Source: Zygnema cylindricum
Lineage: Eukaryota; Streptophyta; Zygnematophyceae; Zygnematales; Zygnemataceae
Reading direction: 5' to 3'
Length of the DNA: 64,000 nt
NCBI GenBank assembly: GCA_037447655.1
Contig: JBBHKE010002999.1
Location: 242,409-306,408, forward strand
Shown here: positions 2,700 to 46,343 of the stretch, piece by piece
Layout of the letters: the number at the start of each line of letters is the position of its first letter
Position numbering within the stretch: the stretch's first letter is position 1
Translations under genes and position numbers: made by a program
Notes under the pieces: generated by a model
Told to the model about the DNA's origin: nothing
The model's input: the letters and a program-made list of their open reading frames with translations, nothing else
Database searches by the model: none

Positions 2700-4106
2700 T
2701 AGCTAACCGTTTCACCACTATACTCTCACTTCTTTCCACTTCTTCTCAAACTCCATTTTCGCCCTCGCCGACCATTCCCTCGCCTTCTCCCTGCTCACCT
2801 TTCTTCACTCTCATATCACCACTTCGCCAATCGATCGTCGGATTCCATTTTTGCAGCCACGGTTTCCCCAAGATTACTTCATGGTCCCCAAGAGGTAATA
2901 CATGAAGCGTGTCATACCATCAGAATTTCCCAATTCCAACGCGTAACCTCGGAGTACGATGGGTAATCGATAAGGAACTTCCGTCGGCCAATTGTACCGA
3001 CTGATGATCCTTTAGCAATACGAGGAGAAATTTTAACCTTTTCACCGTCGACTCGTTGATGAAGTTCCCCGATGCTTCGGAGTCCACCATGATGTTAGTT
3101 GCGTTCACTCCGATTTGACCCCGAAATATCAAAGGGTCTCCTCCTTCTCCGGCTAACCTCATAACGTTGAGTTTTCCCTTTTTGGTACCTTTTCGTTTTG
3201 GACATTCTCGAGCCACATGATCTGGGGAACCGCACTGAAAGCATAGGCCATTTTGCCTCCTCCGCTGAAGCTCCTGAGGGATAAGTCATTGGTCTTGGTC
3301 TTGGTAGGTTTCTTCTTTCTCCGCAGGACGTTGACAACTTCCTTATCCTCGTCAATTGCTCCGAGCTCCATGGGGGTTGGGCCATTGTCTCGGCGGCTTC
3401 CTTCGCCGCTGCTCGACCCGTAATGATAAGGTCTTCGGAGGTTGAAGTCGACCGAATCGGTCCGCTCCGCAAATTGGATGATTGCCGAGAGGCTAGGAGT
3501 CGTGCTTTCTTGAGCAAGCCATTGTTCCACATCCCTACGAATAGAGGATTTAAGCCCCTTCACGTAGCGATCCACGGCTTCATCCTCCGTCATCGTGGGT
3601 ATTTGAACTTTGCACTCGAAGAACCGCTGCGTAAACTCCAACACTGAGGTTCGTTTCTTCATCACTGCGATCTTATCTCTTGCCGCCTTCACCGTATTGA
3701 CGGGCTGCCAAGCGTCACGGAGGAGTTGAATAAAGAGAGCCCAAACGGTCGCTACCTCATCATTCTCCACCATTGTCCTCCACCATGCCCCCGCTGCCCC
3801 TTTAAGAAGACCACCCACATAGTGAATCTTCTCACGATCCGATCAGCTAGGAAAATTCTCGAGATAGTTCGCAACGGAGAATAGCCATGTGTCAAGGTTC
3901 TTGTGTCTTGCAAGGTCAAACTCGTCGGGAAGTCTCAATTTTGGTCTCCTCAAGTCTCTCTCTATGCCTCCATGAGGACGCTCCCCAAGACGAGACTCCA
4001 AGGCTGCGACGGTGTTGCTCAGCAGCGCGTTCTGTAATCTAACGCTTTGCAACTCCCTGAGAACTTGCGCTAACATTTCTGTAGTGGATACGGCGTGTTC
4101 ATCCAT
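2700..4106 (-). pseudogene. Ty3/gypsy-type Gag and aspartic protease remnant
   Basis: Minus-strand coding. Gag starts at 4106 (MDEHAVSTTEMLAQ), 22 bp after the primer-binding site, with a short coiled-coil-like N-terminus. A TAG stop at 3843-3845 interrupts the same frame, which resumes as the retrotransposon Gag domain (GAAGAWWRTM, VLEFTQRFFECKV). A frameshift near 3220-3240 precedes an intact CCHC zinc knuckle (CFQCGSPDHVAREC). The retropepsin follows with IMVDSEASGNFI, where the usual DSG reads DSE, then a TGA just after GIGKF, then LHVLPLGDHEVILGKPWL, typical of Ty3/gypsy proteases. RT and beyond are lost at the gap. Non-functional. Confidence 0.85.
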
Positions 4107-4140: not shown

Positions 4141-4650
4141 TGTAAAAGGGACAATTGCGCGCCAGAGCACACCACAATGCACAGCGGAAAACACCAAGGA
4201 TCTCCCTGTAGCAACAGTAGCAGCACACAGCACTGACAGACAAAGTTGCGCTTTATTACTTGGAAGAGAGTACAAGGTTGCGCTCGCTGCGTATGTCTTT
4301 TCGAAGAGTGTCTTATCCACTAAGCCTACCTGACTATTTAAACTAGCTAGCTGTTTGTCAACCTAGTACTGTACAACCGTACACGTGGACCTTCACGGTC
4401 AACCGAGACAAATCCCCGAAATATCTTCTAGAACAATATCGTTCTATCTACATTCCGCGGTGTTGCTATACTGCTAATCTGCGTTGCTCTACTGCGCTGC
4501 TATGCTGCTATGCCACTAAGTAACTATGTTGCTAAGTTGCTATACTGCTATGTTGCGCTGGTCTAGAATCGCAGCTGCGCTGCTCTGACATCGCAACCAT
4601 AGCAGCCTAGTTTCTAACTACTAAGTACCCAACTATGTAACCTTGTTACA
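4141..4650 (-). repeat. 5' LTR (about 510 bp) of the gypsy remnant
   Basis: On the plus strand it starts TGTAA at 4141 and ends TTACA at 4650, so the termini are inverted repeats. A TATA-like TTTAAATA (minus strand, near 4335) and an AATAAA (near 4255) are in the right order for a minus-strand element. Between about 4450 and 4570 there is a degenerate short tandem repeat of GCTATACT/GCTATGTT units. The partner LTR would lie left of the gap and is not seen. The LTR abuts copia Gag sequence, so this element inserted into the third copia. Confidence 0.7.
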
Positions 4651-5227: not shown

Positions 5228-6448
5228 TGTTGTCCTTGGCCTATTTCAGCCATGGATGACTCACTGAAAACACCCACAGACTACCCTAAAACAGCTGTGT
5301 TTCAGACAGCACAGATTCCTCCACAATGAACACAAACAACCAAAACTTTACCAGCATGTATTGTATTTTATACACTGTAATCCCCCAAAGTAATAGCCAA
5401 ATATACCAAGGAATTCAAAAGATATGAGCTGCAGAGTTTACCAAAAACATCTGACAGCTTATCAAACTAACCAGGTAGACTTCTCACACAATTCTATAGA
5501 AACAACAATAAAGGCTGATACTACTCACAAATATAGTTTCTAGATCATAGAACATCTACACAAAGTTTCACATCAAAATGTCAATCAGAGTGATCACACT
5601 AACAGGTCAAATATGCAGAAAAAAACAGTCTGTCATTACTTTGATAAAACTCAGCTGTGATAATAAAATAAACTAAGTCCTACACAAAGTTGTCTACTGA
5701 GCCCTAAACTAATAAAATAGCTACACGTGTAAACAATTACTGTACTCAAATAAAGACAATGTACGTCAACGGTACATCTACTGTACAGGAGGTACGTCTA
5801 AACCCCAATTATGACTTTTATCTAATTTAACAATTGCCACACTAAAAAGTAATTCACTACATACAAATTAATGTTGTTTAAGATATTTACAAATTGAAGC
5901 CGTACATAAATTGTGTCACTCGCTTAGTTAGCAATTTGCTAATCCGTCCAAGCGTCCGCACAAGTCAGCTCCGAATTTGCGGATCGTCGTTAGATGTAAA
6001 GTAAATCTTCGTCGTGGACGACACGCGTCAAAATCACTTATCCCAATGTGGTCCCATTTTGAATCGAGTTGGTCGACTCGATTCGTATCCACCGTTCATT
6101 CTTTGTCGTGTATTTTAGCATAGTTCATATACGTCTAGCCGACTGTTGCTGTGCGGTATGAAGCACCTGAGTGCGTACGGCATGTTTTGTCACTTGTGGT
6201 CCCGCGTGAATCGCGTCCGTCGACACGATTCGAATCAACGTTCCATACTGATTTCGTACAGTACATTTTCTGGTTGTCCAGTGCAAACTTCGTCCGTGCG
6301 ATTCTTCGAATTTGCTCGTTCGATATTCGACACTACTGTAACACTATTAGGGGTGAGTACTAAAGTGTTTATACTAAAAATTATTCTAAGTACTAATCCC
6401 TCTCTCACTGACCCATTTACTGAGTACTAAAGCTTTCTAATCACAACA
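5228..6448 (-). repeat. 5' LTR of the third copia (about 1.22 kb)
   Basis: Starts TGTTG at 5228 beside the primer-binding site and ends CAACA at 6448, giving five-base inverted termini. It contains a degenerate internal duplication around 6045-6105 and 6190-6250 (GTGGTCCC...GTCGACTCGATTCG versus GTGGTCCC...GTCGACACGATTCG). The adjoining sequence at 6449 reads straight into Gag-like coding of the methyltransferase element, so this copia inserted there. Its target duplication cannot be checked. Confidence 0.6.
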
Positions 6449-8998
6449 TATTCTCCTGGATATAGAGGAGTAGTGGGGAACATCCTTCCTCCAACCATAT
6501 TTTCAGACGTCGCGACTTCTTCTGTGGGAGGGGGATCCACACCTCAGGAGGCCGCACCTTTTACCGGAGGAGGACACGGTTCTGACCTAAAGGAAGATGA
6601 TACGTGAGTCATCTCTCCGGCTTAGTTTGTCCTTCCCACCGGGCCTTCCTCTTCCTATTTCACCAATGTTGCAGAGGAAGAAAAGGAAATTAGGGATATC
6701 CGGATCTTTACAGGAGATAGCTCGAGAATCGCATTTTCGGATTTCGAGTTGTTGTGGAAATATTTCACACAAGCCGAAATCAATAAGTACCGTGGAGGAG
6801 CCATTCCGGATAACTTCGACTCTAGCTCCCTTTCCAGCCTTCAGTGACTACGACAAGTGTGGGGGCTTGGAGAAGGGAGTCAGGGGCAGACTGCCTCTAC
6901 TCTTTTCTATCTAATAAAGACCTAGAAAATACCCAAATATCAACAGATGGCTCCTAGCATTAAGATCTCGGATCTAACCCTCGATGCTGCCATTTTACAA
7001 GAGGAGGCTGACTTTGCTGCCGCGGTTGCGACACCTGTGACCGTTACCTTTACACATGACATGAAACTCCAGGCGCAGGGAGGTGCCTATGTTAACCAGC
7101 TGCAAGCAATCCAGGCAGCCCAGGCAGCAACTCGCATGGTTGCCAATCCTAATCGTTGTACCACCCTGCTTAACATCTGGAGACTCCTTTACACAAAGAG
7201 GAACGAGTCAGCGATCAAGGAATTCACGGAATTCCGATGCTTGAAGAACGAGACTCCCCCGACTCTCTTCAACCGACTTTCAAGCATTTGTCAGAAAACG
7301 AAACTGTCCACGATTGACCCTCCCGCAATGGCAACTAAATACTTTATCGTTGTCCGCAATTCATTCGGACAAACAAGGCAGACTGCTCTAGATAATTGGA
7401 TTGGCGGACAGGCAATTCAGGACATCAATCCCTCGGCAAATGAAATCTCACTGGTGGCGATGAAATTATATGACCACTTTGTCCAGAGTGAGGCAAGGGA
7501 GAAGGCCGTGACATGCAAAGCCCGAGCAAATTTTGCAGGATTCGCTGGGGAGACCTCTCTGAATGAGGAGGAACAGGCTGAACTTCTAGCTTTGTGGAAG
7601 CTTAAAGGGAAGCAAGTGGCTGAAAGCGGGTCAGGACCAGCTATGGGAGCAGATGAGCGAGTATTTGTCTATAATTGCATGAATTGTTAGCAACCGGGTC
7701 ATGGGTGGAAGCACTACACCTGGAAACTCAAACTGGAGCTGGCTTTGAAACTTTAGGAATGTGAGAAATAACGTGCAGAGAGGACCTTGAAACAGCATAA
7801 AAGGCTCAAAGGAGGGAGGGGAGAGAACAAGACACCGGTAACCAAGGAGACTTACCGTCCAACTCCACGGAGCGATACCTCTAAAATTTCAAAATCTCAG
7901 TTGTGGCAAATGAAACTTCCAAACTTTGATGACGCTCAAATCTCCAACGAAATCCGGAGAAAATATACCAACGAGGGCGCGAAGTGCGAAGCTTGTGGAT
8001 TTCTGGGGCATAAGGAAGGGCAATATTTCCGGAAAAATGGAGTACCAAAAAAATGATGCAATTTGCTTTGTTTACTGGAGAATGAGAAACATCCGTTAAC
8101 CCTCTCCCCCTCCAACTACTTTACCCTTGGGGGCGCCAACTTATGTCCACGCCGGAGAGATCTGAACGCGCCCTGGTTGCTCTGGCCAGGCTTATGCCGG
8201 AGATCATCATTCAACAACAAAGTCAGCAGCTGGCCGCAATGGATGCACAAGTTGGCTGCTCTCCGCCTAGGATCTTCTTCTCGGCCTGCTCCTCTCACAG
8301 CAACACAACGACTCCAAAAGCAAAAATAGGAGTTGTTACAGGAACTCGCAAAGCTTGAGCTTGAAGGCACCGCGAATGCCAACGATGACGATTTATTGGG
8401 ATGGGATTTTGAACCCTCAAATACCCACCATGCCTGAACCTTCCTGTCCGGAGCTTGGAATGTTAGGGTGGGAGACAGCCGCCGCCAACTCCGTAGTTCC
8501 ACCTTGATGCAAAGATAGGACAGGCAGAAAATGGGTTAGCGAGATCACAACCGGAAAGCTACAAGGCCTTTGTCATTTACTCCTCCGGCAGTAATGTTGA
8601 ACAACGACATCGGCCTAGGAATCAAACCCAATCAACCCCCATCTCTTCCTCCCAAACCTAAATTGCCTCGGGTTTGAAAATTACCAGAACGAGAAATGGC
8701 AGCGAGAGAAGGAGTCAATGGAACAAGAGAAAAAGGACAATCAGGACTGGTTTGAGAGATATATGGCAAAATTTGCAGAAAATGACACTCCCCAAACTCC
8801 TCCAATCCCTGATTTCGGCTCTGAAAGTGAGAAAGAAGGACAAGATCAATATCTGCAGGAACCTAGCTCATCCCCATCTTCACCGAAAGCAACATCTTCC
8901 ATCCTCAAAACCGGTTGTCATGCTAGTCCGGCACCTCATGCCCTATGCCCTCACACACGTGAAGACTCTATCATCCTCCCACAACCTGGCTGAATAAA
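6449..8998 (+). pseudogene. Gag region of the methyltransferase-bearing gypsy element
   Basis: Degraded plus-strand coding. From 6449 it reads YSPGYRGVVGNILPPT, then after two stops a charged stretch (IRDIRIFTGDSSRIAF, WKYFTQAEINKY) until a copia LTR scrap interrupts at about 6826. The longest frame, 6947-7690, has MAPSIKISDLTLDAA and IKEFTEFRCLKNETPPTLF. Two CCHC-like knuckles follow: NCMNC-stop-QPGHGWKHY at about 7670-7715 and CEACGFLGHKEGQY at about 7987-8030. In both the last Cys is Tyr, and the first is crossed by a TAG. A Gln/Glu-rich segment (8210-8390) and an acidic, Pro-rich segment (8690-8995) lead to the protease. Several stops and frameshifts; non-functional. Confidence 0.6.
6826..6945 (-). 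mobile_element. Copia LTR fragment inside the gypsy gag
   Basis: About 120 bp match the terminal part of the copia LTRs (compare 12490-12618 and 25440-25569): CTTCAGTGACTACGACAAG, GACTGCCTC, GACCTAGAAAATAC, ending CAACA. Only one true LTR terminus (minus-strand TGTTG at 6945) is present; the rest of that element is gone. Confidence 0.6.
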
Positions 8999-9059
8999 TC
9001 CTCATTCAAGCATTGGGAGAGGAGATCCACCCTGGAAAGAGGGGGGTGGATATGACCAT

Positions 9060-9705
9060 TCGCCAACCGCAGTATTTTTGTCCACCAATCCTAAAACATC
9101 TATAGTGGATAGGGACTACAAAGCCTTATCAATGGCTCTTATACTGAACCGGACCAGGAACTTCAAGCTCAATGGGTACGGGGGATACTAGGACGCTGTG
9201 GTCGACACCGGAGCTCTCCCCAACCTCATTACCACCTCCGCTTTGTAGAAAATGCCCGAGGAACTCCGGCCCAAAATCTGCCCAAGCAATATCTGCTTAA
9301 GCACCGTAAGCAGCGACAGTCAACCAGTCCATGGAATAATCAAGACCATGGAAATCGAGTTTTCTGATGACGGAGGCCAAAGGGTGAAAATTGAGCCTCC
9401 TTTCTTTGGTGGTGGAAGGGACTCAATTCGAAATTCTGTTGGGAATGGCCACTTGGACCCGGCTCAATATGAGTTTGAGCGTGTGGAAGGAAAATGTATC
9501 GTCCAGGACCCCAAAAATCCGGAAGGAACCCAAGTGGTGGTTCCTTTGGATTTATGGAACCGGGGGAAGACAAATGTCCCAGTGTCTGGTTCCTACCCGG
9601 TGTACACTACATCATCCACGACGGAACTGTTTGGCAATTCTACAGATATCGCCAAAGAAATCTAGCAATTCCCAATTTCGAAGCGGTGGGAAAAGAAATA
9701 TTAGA
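9060..9705 (+). pseudogene. Retropepsin-like protease of the methyltransferase element
   Basis: The frame from about 9115 reads RDYKALSMALILN, then after a TAG the active-site motif AVVDTGALPNLIT (about 9190-9228), then another TAG. Downstream, after a frameshift near 9395, VVEGTQFEILLGMATW matches the C-terminal ILLG-x-W block of retroviral-type aspartic proteases. The catalytic DTGA is preserved but the frame is broken at least three times. It lies directly before the methyltransferase, as expected for a Pol polyprotein. Confidence 0.65.
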
Positions 9706-9809
9706 ATAGATTATTGCAGGTATCAAAACTCCGGTGGGGAGTGGATAAGGCATTTTCAGACTTAACATTGAAAAAAGCCGTTTCTACACAGCTGTCTAAT
9801 GCTTCCAAA

Positions 9810-10860
9810 CCGAAGTTCGGTAACGAGGAGTTTAATCGACAAGTGGTGTTATTGGCAGTCCTCGATTCGAGACTGCGTATTTTATCTCTATTTTCGAGAA
9901 TTAGTTCCGATTTGGAAGCTATTGTGAAAATAGGATATCTGGTGAAGTCATACGCAGCCGTGGAAATCTCACCCGAGGCGCGGGCTGTCAGCGAACACCG
10001 CCTCCACCAACTTCATCACCTATATCCCCAACAGCTTCCAGTGAAAGTCATTTCCACAACTCACTGAAGTCTCCCCCAAAATGTTGACAACATCCTAGCG
10101 CCTCATCTAGCCTGTTTGGAAAGAGTGGATTTGGTGTTGGCAGGCTGGCCTTGCCGAGGATACTCCCTAACAGGACAAGGAAAAGGGCATCAAGACCGCA
10201 AAAGTGGAACATTTTACCGGATGATCGAATTAATCACGTGGCATCAACAGCATCAGGACACACCGGTGGGGTACGTTTTGGAAAATGTCAACCCAGGAGA
10301 TGATAAAAGGAAACACGTTGCGGACAATTGGAATTACTTAACTCGGATTTTAGGAGCTCCCTTAGTTTTCGACGTCGCACAAATGGGATCCCGCGCACAT
10401 AGAGTAAGGGCATATTGGACCAATATGATACCGCTTCCTATACTTTGACGACTGTTACACAAGCAATTCCCCGACCCGCAGAATTCAGTGCAGCAAATAC
10501 TTGGGGAAGGCGAGATGGCCACCCTGTGACGCGACCAGACCGATCTCATTTCTTTCAGTGCAACAAACCGGGGTTACCACGGAGAGCACTCCCGACTTTG
10601 GTTTCTTTCCTTCACAGTCACGCTTATCGAAAAGGAGCAGCGGGAATGATTTTTGACAGTAAGTCGGGAATCTGGACAACACCGACGATTGCAGAACGGG
10701 AACAAGCGATGGGATTCAATAAAGGCACCACGACACCACTAGGTATTTCAGACCTTCAAAGGTGCAGCCTAATTGGGCAGAATATGTATTTGAATTCTAT
10801 CACATGGGTACTCAAGCATGCACTCACCTTTTCCAGTCTGAAGTCCCCGGAATCCAGGGT
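9810..10860 (+). pseudogene. Cytosine-5 DNA methyltransferase domain inside the gypsy Pol
   Basis: Conserved C5-methyltransferase blocks occur in order. Motif I (ILSLFSRISSDLEAI, about 9878-9922) has Gly replaced by Arg. The catalytic Pro-Cys of motif IV is GWPCRGYS (10143-10166), motif VI is LENVNPG (about 10277-10297), and motif VIII is SRAHRVRAYW. After a target-recognition-like segment come motif IX (TIAEREQAMGFNKG) and motif X (QNMYLNSITWV). A TGA at 10065-10067 interrupts one frame, another lies at 10446-10448, and a shift to a different frame occurs at about 10450-10530. It lies between protease and RT on the same strand, so it is part of the element rather than a host gene. The motif-I Gly loss and the stops make it inactive. 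DNMT subfamily cannot be set by eye. Confidence 0.85.
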
Positions 10861-11129
10861 TGCTTACCTTCAAGCTCCTCAGTTGTTAGCGATGTAGGCA
10901 ACTTTGCAGCTTCAAGGGGGGAGAGAAAGGAGAAGAAAAATTCACATTTCACCACCGTAGTTTTTCCCAATGGGGGGGAGCGACAGCTCCGATGGCAACA
11001 ACTTAGCGGAAGTTGTCAGCAGTAGCGTCCTAGCCGGAGGAGTAGAGGAAGATCTACCGGTAGGATTGGAATTCGACATTAACCTCTGGGTAGACCGCCG
11101 GAGGCTTGGACTGTTGTAGAGAGTGGGAA

Positions 11130-11583
11130 AATGGATTGGACACTAAGGGAGCAATTCGATCCTTAGCAGAAGGCGCGGCTTTCCGAACTATTGGCCGGGA
11201 ACAAGCAAATGTTCTCATGGTCAAAAACAGATGTCGGTATTTACAAAGGAACACCTTTTCGAATTGATTTGATCGACGAGACGTCTACTGTTTGACAGAA
11301 GAAGTATTCTCTCAATTTCAAGGAAAAGGAATTCATCACAGCTACAGTCCCGACTTTGGTGGAAGGCGGATTGGTTCCAGAATGTACCGGACTTCATGGG
11401 TTCGCTTCCCCGACGGTTTTCCCTCCCAAGAAAGACTCGTCCGGGAAGACTGTAGATTTCCGGATGTGCGGAGATGGTCGCATGCTGAACACGCCCACCA
11501 TTTGTGTCCGTTATCCGATGTCGACTACGGAAGAGATATTCGACTCTCTTGTTGGCGCCACTATATATTCCACTCTGGGCATG
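11130..11583 (+). pseudogene. Reverse transcriptase N-terminal half, Ty3/gypsy type
   Basis: From about 11133 the frames read LLAGNKQMFSWSKTDVG and PFRIDLIDETS, then after a stop YSLNFKEKEFI, LVEGGLVPECTG, FASPTVFPPKKDSSGK, VDFRMCGDGRMLN and RYPMSTTEEIFDSLVGA. This is the fingers-to-motif-A part of a gypsy RT. The motif-A Asp appears as Gly (YSTLGM). The domain stops abruptly at 11583 where a copia LTR begins; the YxDD box, thumb and RNase H are not found on the far side. Confidence 0.8.
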
Positions 11584-12618
11584 TGCAATTCTGTGTCCTC
11601 CATTGGACTACAGAATAAAGGAAGCCTCTAGATAGTTGTTAACTAGCCCACTTTAACCCACAGCCACTGCTGGCTAGGTAATCAAGCTGACAATCTGAAT
11701 GCACCCTTTTGCAGCCTAGACTCCCCTGAGTCCGTAGGAAAAAAAATCTCTGAAAACGCCTAACCAGGCGATAAGTTATGAGGCAGTAAAATGCCAATTT
11801 GTACAAACTCTCAAAGGGAGAGGTGACTACCTACCAAAATTTTCTAAGTCCTGATTCTCTCTAATAACTTCTATCTATTAAAGTACGGACCAATCAGATT
11901 ACTGTACCGTACAAAAAAGTACTACTGCCGGTGTACATTTTGTACGGCCTATGTACGACAAGGCTATTAAGCGGACGCGTGTCCGCATTTCACTCGTCTG
12001 TACGTTCCTCGAAATTCCTATGACCGAATGTCATCTTTCCTCGTGGCTCCTGGTCATGCCACGTCACAAAACGCCAAAGTAACCACTCCGGGATTTCGGC
12101 GATGATGTGCGCCGTTGGATTTTATGCGAAACGCAATCTTAGCCGTAATAAATACTTGCGCGGCATTTGTTTCGCTGTCGAAACAAAATGCGTGGTATCC
12201 GTTTTGAATTACTATTTTACGACGTACTTTCTAAAACTGAATCTATATACGCCGTAAACAGTTGTAGTTAAATGGATTTAATTCACCCGAACTATATATA
12301 TATCTATCACATACCATAGCACTTAGCATTGGTCCTTGTCTATTAGGATAAAACTGACCGCTACCGGTCACCTTGACGAACTGTAGGTACCGGGATCAAA
12401 TCTCTGGTCCGTCAAGTATATTTTTAGTAACTTACTAAAATTAGCTGCCTCTTGAACCAAGGCAGCCATGGATCAACCACCCTCTCTAACCTTCAGTGAC
12501 TATAACAAGTATGGGGGCTAGAGAGCGGAGGTGGAGGCAGGTTGTCCGTCCTTTTTTTTCCTTTTATACAAACATATTTAAACCTAGAAAATACTCTAGA
12601 AATCTATAAATTTCAACA
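11584..12618 (-). repeat. 3' LTR of copia D (family of the inner element)
   Basis: Begins TGCAATTCTGTGTCC at 11584 and ends TTCAACA at 12618 (1035 bp). It aligns along its length with the reverse complement of the 1034-bp LTRs at 29479 and 34854, but has clearly diverged. It shows the same CCAAT/GTACGG block, a hairpin near 12155-12190 and a tRNA-like module near 12350-12420. It inserted into gypsy RT coding at 11583. Confidence 0.85.
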
Positions 12619-14035
12619 ACATGAAGAATGGTTTCCACGTCTAATTTTATTTTTTCTTTCAACCCGCATTTTTCCCGACAATATTTTAATTTAGGAGAGG
12701 GCACAGGTTTGGTCATCATGTCAGCCACCATTTCTTCATCAGGTCTATACACAAGATTTAAAATTTTATTTTCAACTTTTTCTCTTACGAAGCTTAATCT
12801 TATGTCCATGTGTTTTGCTTTGAAATGGTGTTTTGGATTGGCTGAAATTGCGATTGCACCTTGATTATCACAAAAGATTTCATGCACTCCCTCCTTCATA
12901 CATCCCAGTTCTTGTAATAATGACTTCACCCACATTAGTTCTTTTACAGCAGAACAAGACGCCATATACTCAGCCTCCATAGTAGATCGAGCGACCACCT
13001 TTTGTTGCTTACTACTCCAACAGCAAGCACCATCCCCCACATACAAAACATATCTAGAAATGCATCTTCTCAAAGGTGCATCCCCATAACTAGCATCACT
13101 CCAAGTGGTGATATCAGTGTGCTCCCCTCCCAAATGCAACCATAATTCTGTGGTTCGAACCAGATATCTCATGACTCTCTTGGCTGCCTCCCAATCTCTC
13201 TTTCTAGGATCTTTGAGACTCCTACTGAGGACTCCTACTGCTGCCGCTATGGCTGGCCTTGTAAATTTCATAAAGTAGATCAAACTTCCTACGGCCTGTC
13301 TGTAAGGAATAGACTTCATAAACTCTCTCTCCTCTGGACTCATCTGATCATCTAAGATTATCACTCCTCCTTCTACACTCCCATCACTTACTTTTTTCAA
13401 GTCCATGGGAGTGGTACAACTATTAGCTTTCTTCATTTGAAATTTCTCAAGCATATTTCCTATTGCTTCTTTCTGAGTGAGTCTTATGATCTTTTTACAC
13501 CTATCTCTTTCCATTTGAATTCCCAAAATATATCTTGCCTCCCTAAATCTTTCATGTCAAATCTGCTTCTAAGATCTTTCTTCAACTTATTGATCTTTTC
13601 TAAAGACTTACTTAACACCAGCAGATCATCCATATAAATTGCAATTAAGACCACACCATTCTCATCGCTAAACATATAGATAGAATGGATAGAGCTGATC
13701 CTGATATATCCTAGACCAGTAAGAAACTCATCTAGTTTCTTATTCCACTGTCATAGAGCCTGATTAAGTCTATATAAGGATTTTATGAGCCTGCAGACTT
13801 TACTCTCTTCTCCATTCTCCACAAATCCCTTTGGTTGCCTCATGAAGATTTTTTCCTCTAACTCACCATTGAGGAAGGCGGTCTTAATGTCCATCTGTTG
13901 AATTTCCATGTCTTCCGCTGCTGCTAGACTGAGGAGAATCGTGACTGATGGGAAACGAACAACTGGGGCGAATGTCTCCTCATAGTCAATCCCCTCCTTT
14001 TGGGTGAAACCTTTTGCCACCAAACGAAAGTGGTT
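12619..14035 (-). pseudogene. Copia D: reverse transcriptase and RNase H
   Basis: Minus-strand copia Pol C-terminal half. From about 14035 it reads RLVAKGFTQKEGIDYEETF, then IQQMDIKTAFLNGELEE, a broken stretch around 13680-13750, then AIYMDDLLVLSKS (the YVDDL box reads YMDDL), and FMKSIPYRQAVGSLIYF. RNase H follows with TTWSDASYGD, STMEAEYMASC and FCDNQGAIA, ending near 12564. The frames 14158-13751, 13675-13484 and 13526-12564 differ, so there are at least two frameshifts. Closest relative here is the inner element's Pol. The 5' half of the element is missing: at about 14035 the sequence switches to plus-strand gypsy integrase. Confidence 0.85.
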
Positions 14036-14039
14036 CCTC

Positions 14040-15180
14040 CCCCCTCTGACCGAGAAATTATGATTACCAATCTCCATCGGCAATGTAGACACTTTGGGCA
14101 AAAGCCGACCACTTCCCTCGTCACGGGCTCCTATTGGTGGCATGGGTTGCGGACCCAAGTTAACCGAATTGTGCAGACTTGCTCTTCATGCGATCGAGTT
14201 AAGGCAGCTTTTGAAAAAAAGGGCGGGACTGCGCTTCATTCGCTTCCTATCTGGGGGTTGTTTTATCGGTGGTCGTTTGATCTTTTGGGACCTCTTCCGA
14301 CCATCAGGCAAAGGAACCGCTTTGTGCTGGTCATGATAAAACATTTTTCCAAGTGGATCGAGTTAGTGGTGTTGCCCCGAAAGGAGTCCAAGGTAATTAC
14401 AGATGCCTTTTTGCAAAGGGTTTTAGCCCAATTCCGGGCGCTTGCGGAAGTTCTAACCGACTAAGGCTCCGAATTTGTCGGAGAATTTTCCAACCTCTTG
14501 GATAAATGCCTAGTCCACCATCGGTTGACCAGCCGTGACCACCCTCAAGCCGGCAGTTTGGCCAAAAGGTGCGTACAGTCAATGAAGCGGTCACTACGAA
14601 AATATGTAGTTGAAGAAGATTTGGGGGAGTGGGACATAAAACTGCCTTGGATTGCTATGGGTTACAGATTCAGCAAGCAATTTCTCTCCACCCTTATTGC
14701 CCTTATTTCATTCTATTTGGACGGCATCCCATCTTGCCCGAAGCTGCATCCGCTTAAGCGGTGGTCCTCCTGGAGATGGATGACAAGGGGACAGTCGAAA
14801 AACTAATCGCCGACAAAGCTAGGATATTCCACCGAGAGATGCCTCTTGCCATGGGCAATTTAAAGGCGGCTCAACACCGAGATCAGTTGTGTTATCTCAA
14901 CGCCGGAGCGGGAATTATGTGCCCTAGCAGCGACGATTTATGCTGGGGGGCTTTGTATATCGGATGCAACAGAAGAAGGGCACGCTGGATATTTCTGCCA
15001 GAAGAGTAATTTTGAAAGTGGTTGAAGTTTCCAACAAAGGGGTTCTTAACTTGGAGGGAAAGGATGGTCGACGAATTAAAGAGAATTAGATCAATGTGGC
15101 CCCCTGCCATCTTCGAGGATTGGAAGACGAACCAACTTTCCACTTAACTTACTTTGCCTATCCTCCTTCCTGTTCATCAG
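14040..15180 (+). pseudogene. Gypsy integrase and Pol C-terminus of the methyltransferase element
   Basis: The zinc-binding region reads NLHRQCRHFG...YWW...TCSSCDRVK, a slightly altered HHCC. The catalytic core has SFDLLGPLP with the first Asp and LTD-stop-GSEF with the second Asp; the third motif, HPQAGSLAKR, has Lys where the catalytic Glu is expected. C-terminal sequence follows with AQHRDQLCY and, in another frame, TLDISARRVILKVVEV and NVAPCHLRGLEDEP, as in plant gypsy elements. Stops at 14462-14464 and near 15088, plus frameshifts, break it. It continues the gypsy Pol interrupted at 11583. Confidence 0.8.
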
Positions 15181-15356
15181 CTTGCAATCAGTCCTCCTAG
15201 CTGTACAACATATTGGTCTGCAATCAGTGTGGTCAGTGTTGGCATTCAGCCTGTCTCCCCTCTTCTTAGGAGCCACACCCTTTACCCTCCAACACCAGGT
15301 TCTGTGGGAACTGCGAATGGAGCGGGTAATTATTTTTTATATCTTAGTCACGGTTG

Positions 15357-15660
15357 ACTAAGAGGGGGGGAAATTGGGATATCAGCGCGATAACCGAGAC
15401 CCAAATCCCTTCCCCCGGCCAACGGGGGGGGAAAAGGAAGGGGGAGGGGATAACTTTCGCCTTCCCCTTGCCCTCATCCCTATTCCCTGTCCAAGCATCT
15501 CTTCTATTTGGCATGCATATCTATGGGAGGGATGTGGGCAACAGTAAGTATGATCAACATTTTGGGAAGCATTCGCATTCGAGGTTTATTTGCAGGACTC
15601 CAATGTCGACGACTCCGGGCAGTGGGCCTTTCCCTGACGTTAATCAGGCACGCTCGACAG
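15357..15660 (+). repeat. Polypurine tract and probable 3' LTR start of the methyltransferase element
   Basis: A purine run GACTAAGAGGGGGGGAAA ends at about 15373 and is followed by TGGGATATCAGCGCGATAAC from 15375, the expected layout of a polypurine tract plus LTR start. The first ~285 bp recur at 16848-17122. The outer end of this LTR and its 5' partner were not identified. Confidence 0.45.
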
Positions 15661-16845
15661 CTGTCAAGCTCATGTGCTTTTCAGGCATACCTTTATATCA
15701 CCAAGGATTTCCGGGCCCTTTTTACACTGTATGGTCTTAAGAGTACGGAGGAGTTAGTGCACCAAGCCAGACTAGGTCCTTGTATTTCCTAAACTGAGCG
15801 AAACACATTTTATTTGGCGCCTAACGGAAGCCGGACGACAAAGTTCTACCGTCTCAAATATTGCAATTCCGTTACAAAGAACCATTTGCCAAGAGCCCCC
15901 GTGGGGGGTACATTGTGGATTGCCATGTACCTTTCCCGATTTGCATTTAGATTATGCTGGTAGCCGTCTATAGGAATTTAGTTCTATCTTAACTGAATTT
16001 TTGTCCATTAATTATGTTAGGTCAAAGTCTAGCAAGTTAATGTCTTTTTCAGAATTTTGTTTTATAATAGTGGACTGAACAATTACTTCCGGCCGCGGAT
16101 CTAGCCGCAGTTCGGAGCAAAACTTTTTGCCCCGAGTGTAGTACTGATTATTTTGTCTTTTGTCAGTTTAATTACACTCGCTTGCCGCTCATTGGTTAAC
16201 TGCATAGCTTTGACTTTTAGACCTGCAATTTTTGAAAAACTTTGATGCATAAGGCACTTGGGATCGAAGGAGACAGGTTGCTTTTCAGTAGTGTCTCCTG
16301 AGAAAACCCTCAGAAATTCCAACAAAACTTCTTTTGGAGAATCTTTGTGTTTTTTCGACTCTATTGCCATCTTGATTTTGGATCTGTCTTTTGTGGAAAT
16401 CACAGTCCGGGCGGGTAGTTGGCAATATCTTCCTTTAGGGTGACTTTGGAATTTTTGCTGTTTGGAACTGAGAAGAGTCTGGTCGGTTCTGAGTTGCGAA
16501 CATCGAAGGTTGCAGGAGTACCATATTTTCGACGATACTACCAGGAAAGGTTTCGCCTTTTTCTAATTTCCATCGTTGATTGCTAGGGTATGTTAAGCTC
16601 GCTTTGCTACATTTCACATTTTCTATCTTTTATTCTTTTTTTTCTGGGACAAGGTGATATTTTCAAATCTGGAAAGCCAATCATATTCATATATATATAT
16701 ATATCTACATGGTAGTGCATTTGTGTATTCATCTGGAGTTCTCTTTGCTTTGGAGTTCCTTTTCCGGAGTAAGCTGAAACCCCCTGGATCAGGACAGTGG
16801 GTTTTGAGGGAACAAATGCGATAGACTTCTCGTAGACAAAGCAAA
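15661..16845. other. Unassigned region between two LTR-like direct repeats
   Basis: It probably includes the remainder of the LTR and a second insertion. Short minus-strand frames at 16101-16403 (TKDRSKIKMAIESKKHKD) and 16435-16617 (YPSNQRWKLEKGETFPGS) look protein-like in composition but match nothing I recognise. A short (TA)n tract is at about 16691-16705. Confidence 0.3.
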
Positions 16846-16847
16846 TT

Positions 16848-17122
16848 GGGATATCAGCCCGATTACTGAGACCCAAATCCCTTCCCTTGACCAAGGGGAG
16901 GAAGGGGGAGGTGATAACTTTCGCCTTCCCCTTGCCCTCATCCCTATTCTCTGTCCAAGCATCTCTCATATTTTGCATGCATATCTATGGGAGGGATGTG
17001 GGCAGCAGTAAGCATGATCATAATTTTGGGAAGCATTCGCATTTGGGGTTTATTTGCAGGACTCCAATGCCGACGACTCCGGGATGTGGGCCCTTCCCTC
17101 ACGTTAATCAGGCACGATCGAC
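16848..17122 (+). repeat. Second copy of the LTR-like repeat
   Basis: Starts TTGGGATATCAGCCCGATTA and follows 15375-15660 closely (AACTTTCGCCTTCCCC, ATCTATGGGAGGGATGTGGG, GGTTTATTTGCAGGACTCCA, CACGTTAATCAGGCACG). Same orientation, moderate divergence. The sequence after it (from 17123) differs from that after the first copy. Confidence 0.7.
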
Positions 17123-17254
17123 AAAGGAGGCAATTAAGGATTTAGAAGTGAGGGAGATAAATGTAAAAAATACATTAGGACAAGGTTTGGCAGACGACCA
17201 ACTTCGAAATATGACTCGATTTAAGACAACGTTTTAGCGAGGCGTTGGTAGTGA

Positions 17255-24520: not shown

Positions 24521-25569
24521 TGAAACTCTGAGACCTCCATAAGTCCTCAGAGTGGACAGCTTCCAAGAAGCCTCTAAGATAATCCTGACCCCTTTGTGTT
24601 TAAGCAAAAATAACTGCCACCCTGGCAGACAAAAACTCTGACCAACTTCTTCCCTGTGAAGACAAGACTCCCCTGAGTCGATAGCAAAAAGAATCTCTGA
24701 ATTTGCTCCCCTGAGCAGTAAGTTATGGAGGGTCAAAGTTGACCTTTTGTACAGAAGCTCTCTGGGAGAGAGGGTCCTATCTTCTAATTTTTCTAAGTCC
24801 TATCTCTCTCACAGACTCTATCTACTGATGTACGGAACCAATCAGAATTGAGTTCCGTACGCAAAAGTACAGCTGCCGGTGTACTTTATGTACGGATATT
24901 GTACGACATGGCCAAAATGTCGACACATGTCAAATCCGGATTCGGTGCCATAATCTCCGGAGTTTCCACAATCCAACGGAATTTTGCCACGCGTCATCCG
25001 ATGTGGCGATGGCCACAAACCGCCGAAATCTTCCTCCGCGATCTCGGCGCTAATCCCGGCCGTCCGATTAAATTCGTCTTTAATCGTAGCCGTAATAAAT
25101 ACATGCGCGGTATTTGTTTCATTTACGAAACAAATGCGCGGTACTGATTTATGTCCGTACCGTAAGTCGTACATTACATATTACTGGATCTATGTATCCC
25201 GTAATTAATTCTAGTTAAATGGTTTATCGCTTGTATACATATATAAATAATTATCAAACTATATGCTAGGTAACATTACCGCTAGATGAAACGGCTAAGG
25301 CTACCGGCTACTTCGTGTCTGCCGGCCGTCAGGTTCAAGGATCAAATCCTGCCGACGGCACATACATTTTAATTAAATATATAAACCCTAATATAAAATT
25401 CCCGTAAACCTCAGGATAGCCAAGGTAGCCATGGCTCTAGCTTCCTCTCCAATTTCTCAGTGACTGCGACAAGTTTGAGAGTTGGAGAGAGAAGTTAGAG
25501 ATAGACTGCCTCGACTTCTATATTTCTTTTCAGACCTAGATAATACTAATAAAACCATTAGTTTCTACA
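24521..25569 (-). repeat. 3' LTR of the outer copia element (1049 bp)
   Basis: Starts TGAAACTCTG, ends TTTCTACA, the same length as its partner at 35906-36954. I count about nine mismatches between them by eye, five of them within 25 bp around 25305-25325. Contents: a CCAAT box near 24838, many GTAC words, a hairpin TTTGTTTC-ATTTAC-GAAACAAA near 25105-25128, a TATTTATTAC TATA-like box on the minus strand beside it, and a tRNA-like module at 25288-25360. No clean five-base target duplication was found (left flank GAGTT, right flank GAGAG). Confidence 0.9.
25288..25362 (+). other. tRNA-like A-box/B-box module in the outer copia LTR
   Basis: CGGCTAAGGCTACCGG (A-box-like) and GGTTCAAGGATCAAATCC (B-box-like) are followed by TGCCGACGGCA, which can pair with TGCCGGCCGTCA just upstream of the B box. 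The arrangement recalls a tRNA T-arm with closing stem. It is antisense to the element. The same module occurs at 36673-36747. Confidence 0.4.
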
Positions 25570-25582
25570 CTCCCCTTATTTT
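25570..25582 (-). promoter_or_regulatory. Polypurine tract of the outer copia element
   Basis: The minus strand reads AAAATAAGGGGAG immediately before the LTR's TG, the same 13 bases as in the inner element (34841-34853). The Pol stop codon lies directly upstream. Confidence 0.85.
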
Positions 25583-27882
25583 CTAGTCAATCTTTAATTT
25601 CAGACCACACTTCTCCCTGCAGAAAATTAGCTTAGGGGAAGGCACAGGTTTGGTCATCATATCTGCTACCATCTCACTATCTGGTCTGTACTCTAAACTG
25701 ATTATTTTGTTTTCTACTTTCTCTCTAACAAAGCTGAGTCTGATGTCCATGTGTTTGGCTTTAAAATGGTGTTTAGGATTGGCAGAAATAGCGATTGCTG
25801 CCTGATTATCACAAAATATTTTCTGCACACCACTCTTAAGGTGACCAAGCTCACCAAGCAAAGACTTGACCCACATCAATTCTTTTACAGCAGAGCAAGA
25901 GGCCATATACTCAGCCTCCATGGTGGACTGAGCAATAACCTTTTGCTGTTTGCTACTCCAACAGCAAGCCCCATCACCCACATATAATACATATCCAGAA
26001 GTACATCTCCTCATCGGAGCATCACCATAACTGGCATCACTCCAAGTAGTGATGTCAGTATTCTCCCCACCCAAATGCAACCATAGATCTCTAGTTCCTA
26101 CCAAGTATCTAAGGACTCTCTTAGCTGCCTCCCAATCCTTCTTAGTGGGAGCATTTAGACTTCTACTCAGCACTCCTACAGCTGCAGCTAAATCCGGCCG
26201 GGTACAATTCATAAAATAGATTAGACTTCCCACTACTTGCCTGTAAGGAATAGTCTGCATGAACTTCTGTTCTTCAGGAGATAATTCCTCGTCTAAGACT
26301 ATGACTCCTTCTTCCTCACTCCCCTCACTTCCCTTCTTCAATTCGATTGGAGTTGTGCAACTATTAGCTTTATCCATTTGAAATTTTTCAAGCATGTTTC
26401 CTATTGCTTCCTTTTGAGTCAATCTTATAATTTTTCTTTTTCGGTCTCTCTCTACTTGAATTCCCAAAATATATTTTGCTTCCCCCATATCCTTCATTTC
26501 AAATCTCCCCTTAAGATCGGTTTTCAGTTTATTAATTTTTTCCATTGATTTACTTAAAACAAGCAAATCATCAACATAAATTGCAATAAATATAAAACCT
26601 TCCTCATCTTCGAAAACATAGATTGAGTGATCTGAGCTGATCCGAATATATCCTAGACCGGTAAGAAACTCATCAAGCTTCTTATTCCACTGTCGGGGCG
26701 CCTGTTTCAAACCATAAAGAGATTTAATCAGCCGGCATACCTTACTCTCCTCTCCTTCTTCCACAAACCCTTCGGGTTGTCGCATGAAGATCTCCTCTTC
26801 TAATTCTCCATGCAAAAAGGCTGTTTTGATGTCCATCTGGTGCACTTCCATGTCTTCCGCCGCTGCTAAACTGAGAAGTATGCGGACGGAGGGAAATCTG
26901 ACCACCGGGGCAAAGGTTTCCTCGTAGTCAATTCCTTCCTTTTGTGTAAATCCCTTTGCCACTAATCTGGCCTTGTAGCGCTCGATTGTGTTATCTGGGT
27001 TCAGTTTCAGTTTGAAAACCCACTTACAACCGATTGGTTTTCGGTTAGGTGGACAGTCCACCAGCTCCCAAGTATCGGCTGCCATGATTGAAGCCATCTC
27101 CTCATTGATGGCTGTCTTCCACCGGTTTCTTTCTGGACAAGTCATCGCCTCTCGATAAGTTTGAGGTTCATCTTGATGAGATAGTTTAGTTACCTTGTTA
27201 TTAACCTGTTTTTCTTGCAGTCTTTTGCTACTTCTCCTCCCTCCCTCAAAATCTGAGGCCGGAATAGATGGTTCTCGTGGATTCTTTCGAACAAACTCGG
27301 CTTCTCCCCTATCCCTTGATTCCGAATCAATTTCCACCACGTCTTCCGCTTCGAGTAGAGTTGTCACTGGAGTTTCCACAGCCGAGTCCTTTTTGGTCTG
27401 ATTTGTTCCTGCAAGAATGTCATCGTCTCTAAAACCTGGATAGTTAGGAAGCTCAAAGTCATCAGAATTTTCTGACTCAAATCTGATTTTTACTGACTTT
27501 GTATATTTGAAGGGATCCACAGACTTTCCTTCATCCATAACTACTAGATGCTTTACTAAGATTATATCTTCTCTTTTTAGATCATAAACTCTATATCCTT
27601 TAACATCCTCATCATATCCTAATAAGTATCCCGGTTTTCCTTTAGGATCTAGCTTCCAATTGGACAGATCAGTATCTAGACTGAATACTTGACTGCCGAA
27701 AACCTTTAAATGAGATAAGTCTGGTTTCCGGCCTGTCCATCTCTCATAAGGTGTTTGATCTTTTATAGCTGAAGTAAGAACTCTATTTTTGAGGTAATTA
27801 GCACAGTTCATTGCTTCTGCCCAAAACCTTTTTCCTATCTTCTTATCCGACAACATACTTCTAGCACTATCACTTAGTGTTC
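25583..27882 (-). pseudogene. Outer copia Pol: integrase C-terminus, RT, RNase H
   Basis: An open frame of 757 codons (27856-25583), preceded by the tail of the integrase core (AERLNRTLSDSAR). It starts with integrase C-terminal sequence (KKIGKRFWAEAMNC, LKVFGSQVFSLD), then an acidic linker, then the RT: GCKWVFKLKLNPDN, YKARLVAKGFTQKEG, VHQMDIKTAFLHGELEE and the intact YVDDL box near 26570. RNase H has TTWSDASYGD, STMEAEYMASC, FCDNQAAIA and KHHFKAKHMDIRL. This part is intact. The catalytic integrase core is deleted at about 27890-27900, where the frame changes, so the element cannot make a full Gag-Pol. Confidence 0.9.
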
Positions 27883-27897
27883 TATTTAACCTTTCAG

Positions 27898-29478
27898 CTA
27901 CCCCATCTTTTTCATCTCTCTTAACTTATCTAGATTCACATGCCCAAGCCTCTTATGCCACATCATAATATCATGAACACCAGCATAATAAAGTTTCTTT
28001 GTTTCATTACTTAAGATCAGCCTAAACATCCCATGGCTACCTTTCTCAGCAATGAAATAGACATCCTCCTCAAAACTAGCAGTAAAGACTCCTTCCCTAG
28101 TGCTAGTGAAAAAACCCTTATCATCTAATACTGATGTAGAGATAAGGTTTTTGTTCAGCTCCGGAATAAACAATACATCGGAGAATGTTAATATGGATGT
28201 CTTTCCTTCAACTAACACTTTCAGATCTACCGATCCTACAAGAGTAGTGGTGACTATCCTCCCATCCCCGTACTCTATCTCTACGGTGGGAATCTTTCTT
28301 ATCTTAGTGAACAGGTGTCTATCCTTACACATGTGCATTGAGGCACCTGAATCTATAATCCAGCCTGCTTCACCTTTCAATCCACCGTAAGCACATTTCT
28401 GCCTTCGTGGAATTTCAACCTCAGTTTTCGCCTCCAACTCCTCATCCAAAAGGAGCTCATCGTCCTCGTCCTCGGATTCCGCCTCAAGTACCTGTGTGAC
28501 AAGGGCCTTTTTCTTTCCTCTCGGGGTACCACCGGTCTGCCCCTCCTTTAACCGAAGCTCGGTTAGCTTGGTGCACTCTGCCATATAGTGCCCAGGTTTC
28601 TTACAAAAATGACATAAACCTTTGGGAGCCCTTGGTTCGAACTCGCCAACCTGTTTTTCCCGCTCCCTACCCCCATAGTTTCTGACTGGTTTCCGGGAAT
28701 CCTTGTTCCTCCAATCGGTCGCTGTTGCCAAGGCTTGGCCACTCTTTCCTCCCCTTCGGATCTCAATCGTATTCTCTCGAACGAGAATCATCCCTACCAC
28801 TGAGTTCCATATCCACCTTGAGTCCGGCAAGTCCTGCACACGGTTGACTATGTTCTCGAACTCATCAGGTAACTTCATTAGTAAACAGTTAACTTTTTCT
28901 TTTTCACTAAAAACTTTACCCGCACTCTCTAGCTCCATGAAGAGTGTAGCAAGCTCATTGCAAAAATCCAACATATTTCCCCCTTTGTATACATACTCCT
29001 TAACTTTCTGATCAGCCAACTGTTGTTGCTGAATCGTACCACTTCGGTACATCTCTATGAGAGCCATCCAAAGATCGGATGCCCTCTCTACCTGCAAATG
29101 AGGACATGCAAGTCCTTGAGTGAGATGGCGTAGGATGAAGTGCTTTGCCGCCATATTGTTGAAGTCCCAGGTTTCAGTATCATTCTCCTCGTTCCTCGGA
29201 ATAGGTGACATGAATGCTAAACCAGTTGCTATTGGTGTGGTCGCCTCCTTCTCCTTTCCTTTGTCCACCACCTCTCCTTCCTTTGTTTCCTCCGTTGAAG
29301 GTGAATCCTCTTTCCTGGTGAATCTGCTTCCTTTAAACCCTGGAGGAATTCCAAGACTTGATGGACGCCCCAATCGTCCACTCACTATCCCCCAAAACCT
29401 TTTTTCGCATAGAGCTCCTATCATCATACTTTCCCAGTATATGAAGCCAGTTCCATTAAATATTGGCACCCTAGAGGG
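27898..29478 (-). pseudogene. Outer copia Gag-protease-GAG-pre-integrase
   Basis: An open frame of 523 codons (29469-27898) that lacks its first residues because the inner element is inserted just before it. Order: N-terminal Gag (PIFNGTGFIYWESMMIGAL), UBN2-like region (RHLTQGLACPHLQVE, LADQKVKEYVYKGGNML), zinc knuckle CHFCKKPGHYMAEC (about 28570-28615), acidic linker, retropepsin IIDSGASMHMC (about 28325-28360) and GAG-pre-integrase WHKRLGHVNLDKLRE, ending at a TAG created by the integrase deletion. All catalytic residues visible here are preserved. Confidence 0.9.
29474..29478 (+). repeat. Target-site duplication of the inner copia, left copy
   Basis: GAGGG immediately before the left LTR's TGTTG; the same five bases follow the right LTR at 35888-35892. 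Five bases is the usual duplication length for copia elements. Confidence 0.9.
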
Positions 29479-30512: not shown

Positions 30513-30525
30513 GGTTATGGGCCCA
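30513..30525 (+). promoter_or_regulatory. Primer-binding site matching the iMet tRNA anticodon arm (inner copia)
   Basis: GGTTATGGGCCCA directly abuts the LTR. It is complementary over 13 nt to the anticodon stem-loop of initiator tRNA-Met as I know that conserved sequence; complementarity stops after it. The ATG (30517-30519) is the complement of the CAU anticodon and is in frame with an ATG in the LTR. Confidence 0.7.
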
Positions 30526-41545: not shown

Positions 41546-41599
41546 TTGCTGTTAACCATTCCATGGATAACTCTATAACAAGACAAAAAATACAATAAA

Positions 41600-46310: not shown

Positions 46311-46343
<33 letters not shown>

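What the first reader, a model, noticed from the sequence alone, without database searches (positions are those of the whole stretch)
6449..15660. A Ty3/gypsy-type retrotransposon carrying its own cytosine-5 DNA methyltransferase
Seen: protease DTGA, then methyltransferase motifs I, IV, VI, VIII, IX and X in order, then gypsy RT and integrase, all on one strand. Known: methyltransferases captured by retrotransposons have been reported in dinoflagellates and a charophyte alga. Inference: this copy is a relic of such a lineage, with the enzyme placed between protease and RT. The enzyme may have protected or silenced the element's own DNA.
Basis: partly seen in the sequence, partly recalled or inferred. 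Interest (0 to 1): 0.88.

Follow-up and report, generated by a model that had tools for sequence, protein, structure and literature searches.

The report
Jumping gene carrying DNA-methylating enzyme
The window holds a decayed copy of a retrotransposon (a copy-and-paste jumping gene) that carries its own DNA-methylating enzyme; other copies, some with unbroken coding frames, lie in the same plant or algal genome, and a similar case was described in one green alga in 2018.

Summary
Window 6454-17124 is a decayed Ty3/gypsy-type copy: gag, protease, C5-cytosine methyltransferase (MTase), RT, [antisense copia relic], integrase, PHD-finger relic. The MTase belongs to the element: of 20 places fetched from the same genome, 19 encode it, 15 with RT downstream and 14 with protease upstream; the twentieth is a host chromomethylase-like exon. 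A metagenomic polyprotein, P0002, fuses MTase, RT, RNase H and integrase. Three subfamilies are seen. In one, MTase dN/dS is 0.13-0.24, RT 0.07-0.27. One copy has a 2395-aa open frame and repeats 100% and 99.6% identical. The ends are not plain LTRs: three of six copies show A1-coding-B1-A2-B2; the window keeps B1-A2-B2, so the element ends near 17124, not 15660. This matches the published description of KnitGypsy-Dnmt3 of Klebsormidium nitens, so it is a new member of a known kind. The MTase is nearest DNMT3 among solved structures, but some phage MTases score as high, so host origin is not shown. Inferred mechanism: the enzyme methylates the element's own cDNA. Host unnamed, probably a streptophyte.

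The parts
6926..7690 (+). gag-like open stretch (254 aa), start of the coding region
   Evidence: 34-79% protein identity to the same place in other copies, by pieces; no Pfam family above its cut-off
9192..9662 (+). aspartic protease region with DTGA at 9204 (one stop at 9246)
   Evidence: 37-63% identity, by pieces, in 14 of 19 other copies
9705..10445 (+). C5-cytosine methyltransferase, N-terminal part with motifs I, IV, VI, VIII (stop at 10065)
10403..10894 (+). methyltransferase, C-terminal part with motifs IX/X, after a frameshift
11167..11583 (+). gypsy reverse transcriptase, N-terminal part only (one stop at 11293), cut by the copia insertion
11584..14027 (-). inserted relic of a copia element (RNase H end and 3' LTR), not part of the gypsy element
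   Evidence: about 90% identical to the young copia element at 29478-35888
14036..14844 (+). gypsy integrase (H2C2 zinc domain and rve core), broken by a stop at 14462 and a frameshift
   Evidence: H2C2 6.4e-13; rve 1e-4, below its cut-off; 66% to P0002
15204..15326 (+). relic of a PHD-finger domain at the C-terminal end of pol
   Evidence: 70% to the open frame of L014 over 14853-15326; Pfam calls PHD in L023 (1.5e-9) and, below cut-off, in L014
15361..15373 (+). purine-rich tract, possible polypurine tract (by eye)
15373..15660 (+). repeat B1
   Evidence: 89% to B2
15663..16845 (+). repeat A2 (matches the 5' A1 repeat of other copies; the window's own A1 was not found)
   Evidence: 65.6-68% to A1 of L022, L010, L014, L027
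16846..17124 (+). repeat B2, 3' end of the element

Best explanation
A decayed copy of a Ty3/gypsy-type element family with several subfamilies, whose Pol polyprotein carries a DNMT3-like C5-cytosine methyltransferase between protease and RT and a PHD finger after the integrase. Shown: architecture, several copies with unbroken frames, purifying selection in one subfamily, split repeats, and one young copy. Inferred: the enzyme travels with RT in the particle and methylates the element's cDNA, most likely at CG, before or during integration, so new copies arrive already marked; the PHD finger helps the integrase find a chromatin state. Being marked at birth would limit harm to the host and let the family persist.
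For: Order gag-PR-MTase-RT-RH-IN across the fetched copies: of 20 loci, 19 have the MTase; of these 14 have PR upstream, 15 RT downstream, 13 integrase, same strand. Open frames of 1520 aa (L014) and 2395 aa (L023) hold MTase, RT, RNase H and integrase; PHD is above cut-off in L023 and below it in L014. P0002, a metagenomic polyprotein, has PF00145 with RT and integrase. Motif IV cysteine and motif VI E-N kept in 19 of 19 loci, the window and P0002. MTase dN/dS 0.13-0.24 in 8 measurable pairs (three distinct comparisons, all subfamily A) against RT 0.07-0.27 in 10 pairs. In L023 A repeats of 931 bp are 100% and B repeats of 242/243 bp 99.6% identical, with TTGG on both sides. Profile of seven copies against the PDB: DNMT3 1e-19, HaeIII/HhaI 1e-7, DNMT2 2.5e-6, DRM2 1.2e-5 (4onj, recalled as a tobacco DRM, 1.1e-6), DNMT1 0.65. 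Passages and one part of PMC5890265 say that two SymbioDIRS-Dnmt3 enzymes methylate CG in yeast.
Against: No test of activity was possible, and the Klebsormidium enzyme, the nearest published case, gave an inconclusive yeast test. The window copy is dead (stops, frameshifts, truncated RT). Transitions between the element's own A repeats (L022, L010) and the window's B repeats are only weakly higher at CG/CHG than at CHH, on few sites, and copia copies give a mixed picture; this does not show methylation. Subfamily C has E-C instead of P-C in motif IV, so its activity is uncertain. Of 28 MTase pairs, 17 were saturated, 2 identical and 1 nearly so. The 100 RT copies without a listed MTase match were not checked. 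Only L023 showed a clean target-site duplication; L022 and L010 did not.
Confidence: 0.72

Rival explanations
1. The enzyme was captured from a phage or bacterial C5 methyltransferase, not from the host's DNMT3; in use it would still methylate element DNA, perhaps with another sequence preference.
For: With the profile of seven copies, phage enzymes score 78.4 bits (Pelagibacter phage, L069) and 73.3 bits (Escherichia phage PaulScherrer, L070) against 72.6 for DNMT3A. In the tree the elements, DNMT3 and three phage enzymes group together (100) apart from 26 IMG/VR enzymes, and DNMT3 falls with the phage enzymes (91) rather than with the elements; holding elements and DNMT3 as one clade is 4.24 log units worse, not rejected (p 0.385). 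PHROG 116 matches 7 of 7 members.
Against: Among solved structures DNMT3 leads the bacterial enzymes by about 39 bits, but the PDB list shows none of the phage enzymes that score as well. De Mendoza et al. place the Klebsormidium relatives in the DNMT3 family, with sequences I could not compare.
Confidence: 0.3
2. The MTase was gained more than once, or moved between gypsy lineages by recombination, rather than once in a common ancestor.
For: By RT, MTase-bearing elements are not one clade (AU p 0.00015; 16 rows against 11), whereas the MTases form one clade (99) among the 41 rows. Copies L027 and L028 have identical MTase but RT dS 0.12, as recombination would give.
Against: The relatives called MTase-free (P0003-P0013) are predicted proteins that begin shortly before RT, some on short contigs; an MTase in an upstream frame would not be seen. 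The MTase trees leave the order of P0002, A, B and also C unresolved, so they do not contradict a single gain.
Confidence: 0.3
3. A host methyltransferase gene fell into a gypsy copy by chance and the two have no shared history.
For: None found beyond the decay of this one copy.
Against: 19 of 20 fetched loci carry the MTase, 15 with RT and 14 with protease beside it; it lies in open frames with RT and integrase, is under selection, and occurs in a polyprotein from another source.
Confidence: 0.01
4. The enzyme works in trans on the host: it alters host methylation or competes with host silencing instead of marking the element's own cDNA.
For: Many copies (184 C5-MTase matches in two capped searches, at least one of them a host exon) could give host-wide effects, as discussed for Symbiodinium (passages of PMC5890265). 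The host has a chromomethylase-like exon, so cytosine methylation probably matters there (inference).
Against: Fusion inside Pol between protease and RT suggests a particle-bound enzyme (inference); Klebsormidium with such elements has a land-plant-like methylome.
Confidence: 0.2

Closest known systems
KnitGypsy-Dnmt3 of Klebsormidium nitens (de Mendoza et al. 2018, PMC5890265; abstract, passages and part 3 of 7 of section 3 read)
   Same: Gypsy Pol with a DNMT3-type MTase in the Pol frame, intronless, purifying selection on the MTase, DIRS-like repeat structure with gypsy domains; probably also a streptophyte host.
   Different: Here three subfamilies, a PHD finger after the integrase, and MTase between PR and RT. 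The text read does not give the Klebsormidium domain order, and the words PHD and protease do not occur in its main text. No sequence comparison was possible.
SymbioDIRS-Dnmt3 and SymbioLINE-Dnmt of Symbiodinium (same paper)
   Same: Retrotransposon-borne C5 MTase; A-coding-B-A-B repeats in the DIRS forms.
   Different: Those have a tyrosine recombinase (DIRS) or a LINE backbone; this one has the gypsy DDE-type integrase and a 4-bp flanking repeat in one copy.
Gypsy elements with a C-terminal PHD finger (P0003-P0010 and P0012-P0014; the Calypogeia fissa protein P0011 is close by sequence but lists no PHD)
   Same: Same RT, RNase H and integrase lineage (45-66% to P0002 over RT-RNase H).
   Different: No MTase in the predicted protein; whether one lies upstream is unknown.

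Membership tests
Ty3/gypsy-type (Metaviridae-like) retrotransposon | Pol order PR-RT-RNase H-integrase with H2C2 and rve domains | tested here: met
   (RT and RNase H truncated in the window, complete in other copies)
Ty3/gypsy-type (Metaviridae-like) retrotransposon | Two plain identical long terminal repeats | tested here: not met
   A1-coding-B1-A2-B2 in L023, L022, L010, 3 of 6 copies with flanks fetched; L024 lacks a found A1, L014 and L027 show no repeat pair
KnitGypsy-Dnmt3 kind | DNMT3-related MTase inside the Pol frame of a gypsy element | tested here: met
   MTase in the Pol frame; DNMT3 best in the PDB; but some phage enzymes score as high
KnitGypsy-Dnmt3 kind | DIRS-like repeat structure A-coding-B-A-B | tested here: met
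   for 3 of 6 relatives; the window keeps B1-A2-B2 only
KnitGypsy-Dnmt3 kind | Purifying selection on the MTase | tested here: met
   dN/dS 0.13-0.24, three distinct comparisons, one subfamily
KnitGypsy-Dnmt3 kind | Common descent with the Klebsormidium elements | not testable with these tools
   no Klebsormidium sequence was available to me
DIRS order | Tyrosine recombinase instead of DDE integrase | tested here: not met
   Pfam finds rve and H2C2 and no phage-integrase family at E 0.01 in three open frames; other frames of the element were not scanned for it
DNMT3 family | Unrearranged motif order I-IV-VI-VIII-IX-X (not DRM) and best match to DNMT3 | tested here: inconclusive
   order met; DNMT3 leads the PDB list but phage enzymes score as high and the tree does not decide
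Active DNA methyltransferase | Catalytic P-C in motif IV and E-N in motif VI | tested here: met
   window, P0002 and the 15 loci of subfamilies A and B; the 4 loci of subfamily C have E-C
Active DNA methyltransferase | Methyl transfer to DNA | not testable with these tools
   needs an assay

The most novel reading that the evidence does not exclude
A gypsy lineage that carries both a chromatin reader (PHD finger on the integrase) and a DNA-methylation writer, kept across subfamilies whose RT is only about 50% identical, with the writer module exchanged between gypsy lineages that do not form one RT clade; possibly the module came from a phage-type enzyme rather than from host DNMT3.
Probability: 0.25. 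Interest if true: 0.75.

Novelty: new member of a known kind. Interest (0 to 1): 0.52.

Why it matters
It suggests that the Klebsormidium case was not a one-off: in another genome, about 353 Mb and probably of a streptophyte, DNMT-bearing gypsy elements form at least three subfamilies with unbroken frames and one very young copy among those examined. A genome with such copies makes it directly testable whether self-methylation helps a retrotransposon: compare methylation and age of MTase-bearing and MTase-free gypsy copies in one host. The pairing with a PHD finger suggests joint reading and writing of chromatin marks by one mobile element.

Tried and rejected
Tried without result: protein searches with the window MTase (573 candidates, none at E 1e-3; 1518 candidates, none at E 10); viral contigs with the single window piece (8 stretches, no relative); Rfam and tRNA scans (nothing); a plain LTR pair for the window (none). 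The viral-contig scan with the alignment of copies gave 26 relatives at 28-41% and the phage collection 297 records under 60%; 26 and 3 of these went into the tree. CG-transition signature: weak, not used as evidence. Rejected: chance insertion of a host gene; DRM (motif order not permuted); DNMT1/CMT (DNMT1 E 0.65). Host DNMT3: a DNMT3C segment gave 137 matches, 150 of 521 candidates scored, at 29-41%; none stood out from the element copies, and short exons would be missed. Two places on contig C2414 match only the first ~100 residues, which would fit a DRM gene (recalled motif order); not examined. The MTase and RT lists were, but for the fetched loci, used as coordinates only.

Rows dropped before counts and trees: L026's RT (antisense, another element) and P0014 (short) from the RT trees; P0015 and the window too. 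L015 is left out of the 19. One of 137 places was not entered (136 used).

Literature: paper searches were answered; others failed. One search (KnitGypsy and two phrases) listed only PMC5890265. One search (two of Zygnema, cytosine methyltransferase, gypsy) listed 10 of 72; by title and abstract start none but PMC5890265 concerns such elements. PMC11096116 and PMC11105155 were seen as passages, PMC12344493 as passages and one section. Its statement that retrotransposon DNMT3s lie in LTR Copia and DIRS elements differs from the 2018 paper, which says Gypsy.


Full report
What is in the window. Frames read from 6400 to 15800 show, on the + strand, a gag-like stretch (6926-7690), a protease region with DTGA at 9204, a C5-cytosine methyltransferase, the start of a gypsy RT, and a gypsy integrase. 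Pfam supports the methyltransferase (PF00145, E 1.5e-6, above its cut-off) and the integrase (H2C2, E 6.4e-13); TIGR00675 gives E 7.1e-9, below its curated cut-off. The protease and motifs I to VIII share one frame with four stops (9246, 9663, 9702, 10065); motifs IX/X are in the next frame. The RT is broken off at 11583 by an antisense copia 3' part (11584-14027) that is about 90% identical to a young copia element at 29478-35888. A PHD-finger relic (15204-15326) closes the coding part. This copy is dead.

Relatives outside. A search with the integrase piece found 14 proteins among 1219 candidates. The best, P0002, from a JGI source, is 1494 aa and carries PF00145 together with RT, RNase H and integrase. 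The other 13 list no PF00145. Of the twelve close ones (P0003-P0014) eleven list a PHD finger, the exception being P0011 from the liverwort Calypogeia fissa; P0015 is distant. These predicted proteins begin close to RT, so an upstream MTase cannot be excluded. Searches with the MTase piece alone found nothing. The second allowed candidates of roughly 540 to 1720 residues, which includes P0002, and still missed it; so these misses say little about absence.

Relatives in the same genome. The window lies in a 352.8-Mb assembly of 2,689 contigs. The PF00145 search scored 123 of 782 candidates, all 123 matching; a DNMT3C segment matched at 137 places, 150 of 521 candidates scored. Together (123 and 136 entered) they give 184 distinct C5-MTase places, a lower bound for matches; at least one (C514, L015) is a host exon, and which of the rest are element copies was checked only in the fetched loci. 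By tblastn 19 of 20 carry the element MTase; the twentieth (L015) is a host exon whose best solved matches are 9mvy, 7ubu and 4fsx (E about 2e-27), the next, other DNMT1 entries, 1e-11; I recall 4fsx as the maize chromomethylase ZMET2. Of the 19, 14 have the protease upstream, 15 RT downstream and 13 integrase, same strand; 10 have both protease and RT. The misses are partly divergence (the protease query is the window's own, and the four subfamily C loci gave no match to it) and partly truncation. Three subfamilies are seen: A (with the window), B (L011, L019, L026) and C (L012, L013, L023, L024), the last with RT 47-51% identical to P0002.

Copies with RT but no listed MTase. An RT search scored 150 of 3187 candidates. 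At least 50 of the 150 have an MTase place within 3 kb upstream on the same strand.

Selection and age. Of 28 MTase pairs among eight unbroken copies, 8 gave measurable values, dN/dS 0.13-0.24, which are three distinct comparisons in subfamily A; 17 were saturated, 2 identical, 1 nearly identical. RT gave 0.07-0.27 in 10 subfamily A pairs. The youngest copy examined with both flanks, L023, has A repeats identical over 931 bp, B repeats 99.6% identical, one open frame of 2395 aa, TG...CA ends and TTGG on both sides. L022 and L010 are older (A repeats 91% and 83%; B 97.5% and 94.8%) and show no clean duplication. The window's B repeats are 89% identical.

Repeat structure. Three of six copies with both flanks fetched (L023, L022, L010) show A1-coding-B1-A2-B2; L024 shows B1-A2-B2 without a found A1; L014 and L027 show no A or B pair. 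The window's 15373-17124 fits B1-A2-B2, and its A2 matches the 5' A1 of L022, L010, L014 and L027. The published legend for KnitGypsy-Dnmt3 states that its repeats are like those of DIRS while its domains are gypsy. With a DDE-type integrase and a 4-bp flanking repeat, this is not a DIRS element.

Which methyltransferase. A profile of seven copies (A1) ranks DNMT3 first in the PDB (E about 1e-19), then HaeIII/HhaI (1e-7), 4onj (1.1e-6, recalled as a DRM), DNMT2 (2.5e-6) and DRM2 (1.2e-5); DNMT1 is at 0.65. The order of motifs is not that of DRM. Against a DNMT3 origin, some phage enzymes score as high on the same profile (78.4 and 73.3 bits; DNMT3A 72.6), and a tree of 41 rows joins elements, DNMT3 and three phage enzymes (100) with DNMT3 beside the phage enzymes (91); one clade of elements and DNMT3 is neither favoured nor rejected (p 0.385). 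No plant or algal DNMT3 was available, so host origin is an inference from the 2018 paper, not a result. The 10 element MTases in that tree form one clade (99).

One gain or several. By RT the MTase-bearing elements are not one clade (AU p 0.00015). This can mean unseen MTases in the relatives, losses, a second gain, or exchange by recombination. The MTase trees do not resolve the order of P0002, A, B and C. Identical MTases with differing RTs in L027 and L028 suggest that copies are mosaic.

How it probably works. The enzyme sits between protease and RT in Pol, so it would be made, cut and packed with RT (inference from gypsy biology). De Mendoza et al. showed CG methylation in yeast by SymbioDIRS-Dnmt3 enzymes and proposed that retrotransposons could self-methylate reverse-transcribed DNA; their Klebsormidium enzyme test was inconclusive. 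I take self-marking of cDNA as most likely, with the PHD finger guiding the integrase. Nothing here tests this directly; the transition pattern between repeat copies is too weak to use.

Comparison and verdict. In architecture, repeats and selection, and probably in host group, this matches KnitGypsy-Dnmt3, so I file it as a new member of a known kind. Not in the text of that paper that I read: the position between PR and RT, the PHD finger, a 4-bp duplication, the E-C motif of subfamily C, and doubt about the enzyme's source (the paper does mention a possible viral source for the Symbiodinium enzymes). The host is probably a streptophyte (chromomethylase-like exon; that chromomethylases are confined to plants and their algal kin is recalled); Zygnema cf. 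cylindricum is a guess from genome size and copia content.

Noticed in passing
window 24521-36954: Nested copia elements: an outer LTR pair 99.1% identical holding an inner element at 29478-35888 with 100% identical LTRs, so copia moved recently.
   Followed up: no
window 44189-52459, - strand: Exons of a host serine protease with PDZ domains (Trypsin_2 1.9e-16, PDZ_1 4.8e-18), spread over at least 8 kb with CT-rich stretches between; looks like DegP7/Nma111 (recalled).
   Followed up: partly
window 58177-59250, - strand: Alpha/beta hydrolase gene part (9.9e-21) whose frame runs through a low-complexity G/R/E-rich stretch.
   Followed up: no
window 3159-3842, - strand: Gag of another gypsy element (Retrotrans_gag 9e-10, Ty3_capsid 3.1e-8).
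   Followed up: no
L015 about 4200-4450: Host chromomethylase-like exon that turned up in the PF00145 search; supports a streptophyte host.
   Followed up: partly
L012, L013, L023, L024 (MTase motif IV): The four subfamily C copies have E-C instead of the usual P-C in the catalytic motif, although L023 and L024 have long open frames.
   Followed up: no
L027 and L028: Identical MTase but RT dS 0.12: these copies look like mosaics, by recombination or gene conversion.
   Followed up: no
G000 C2414:27648-27956 and 41537-41905, - strand: Two DNMT3-segment matches that stop after motif IV, as a permuted DRM gene would give.
   Followed up: no
G000 C961:71797-72495, - strand: An RT match reported inside an open frame of 5743 aa, far longer than in the other copies listed.
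   Followed up: no
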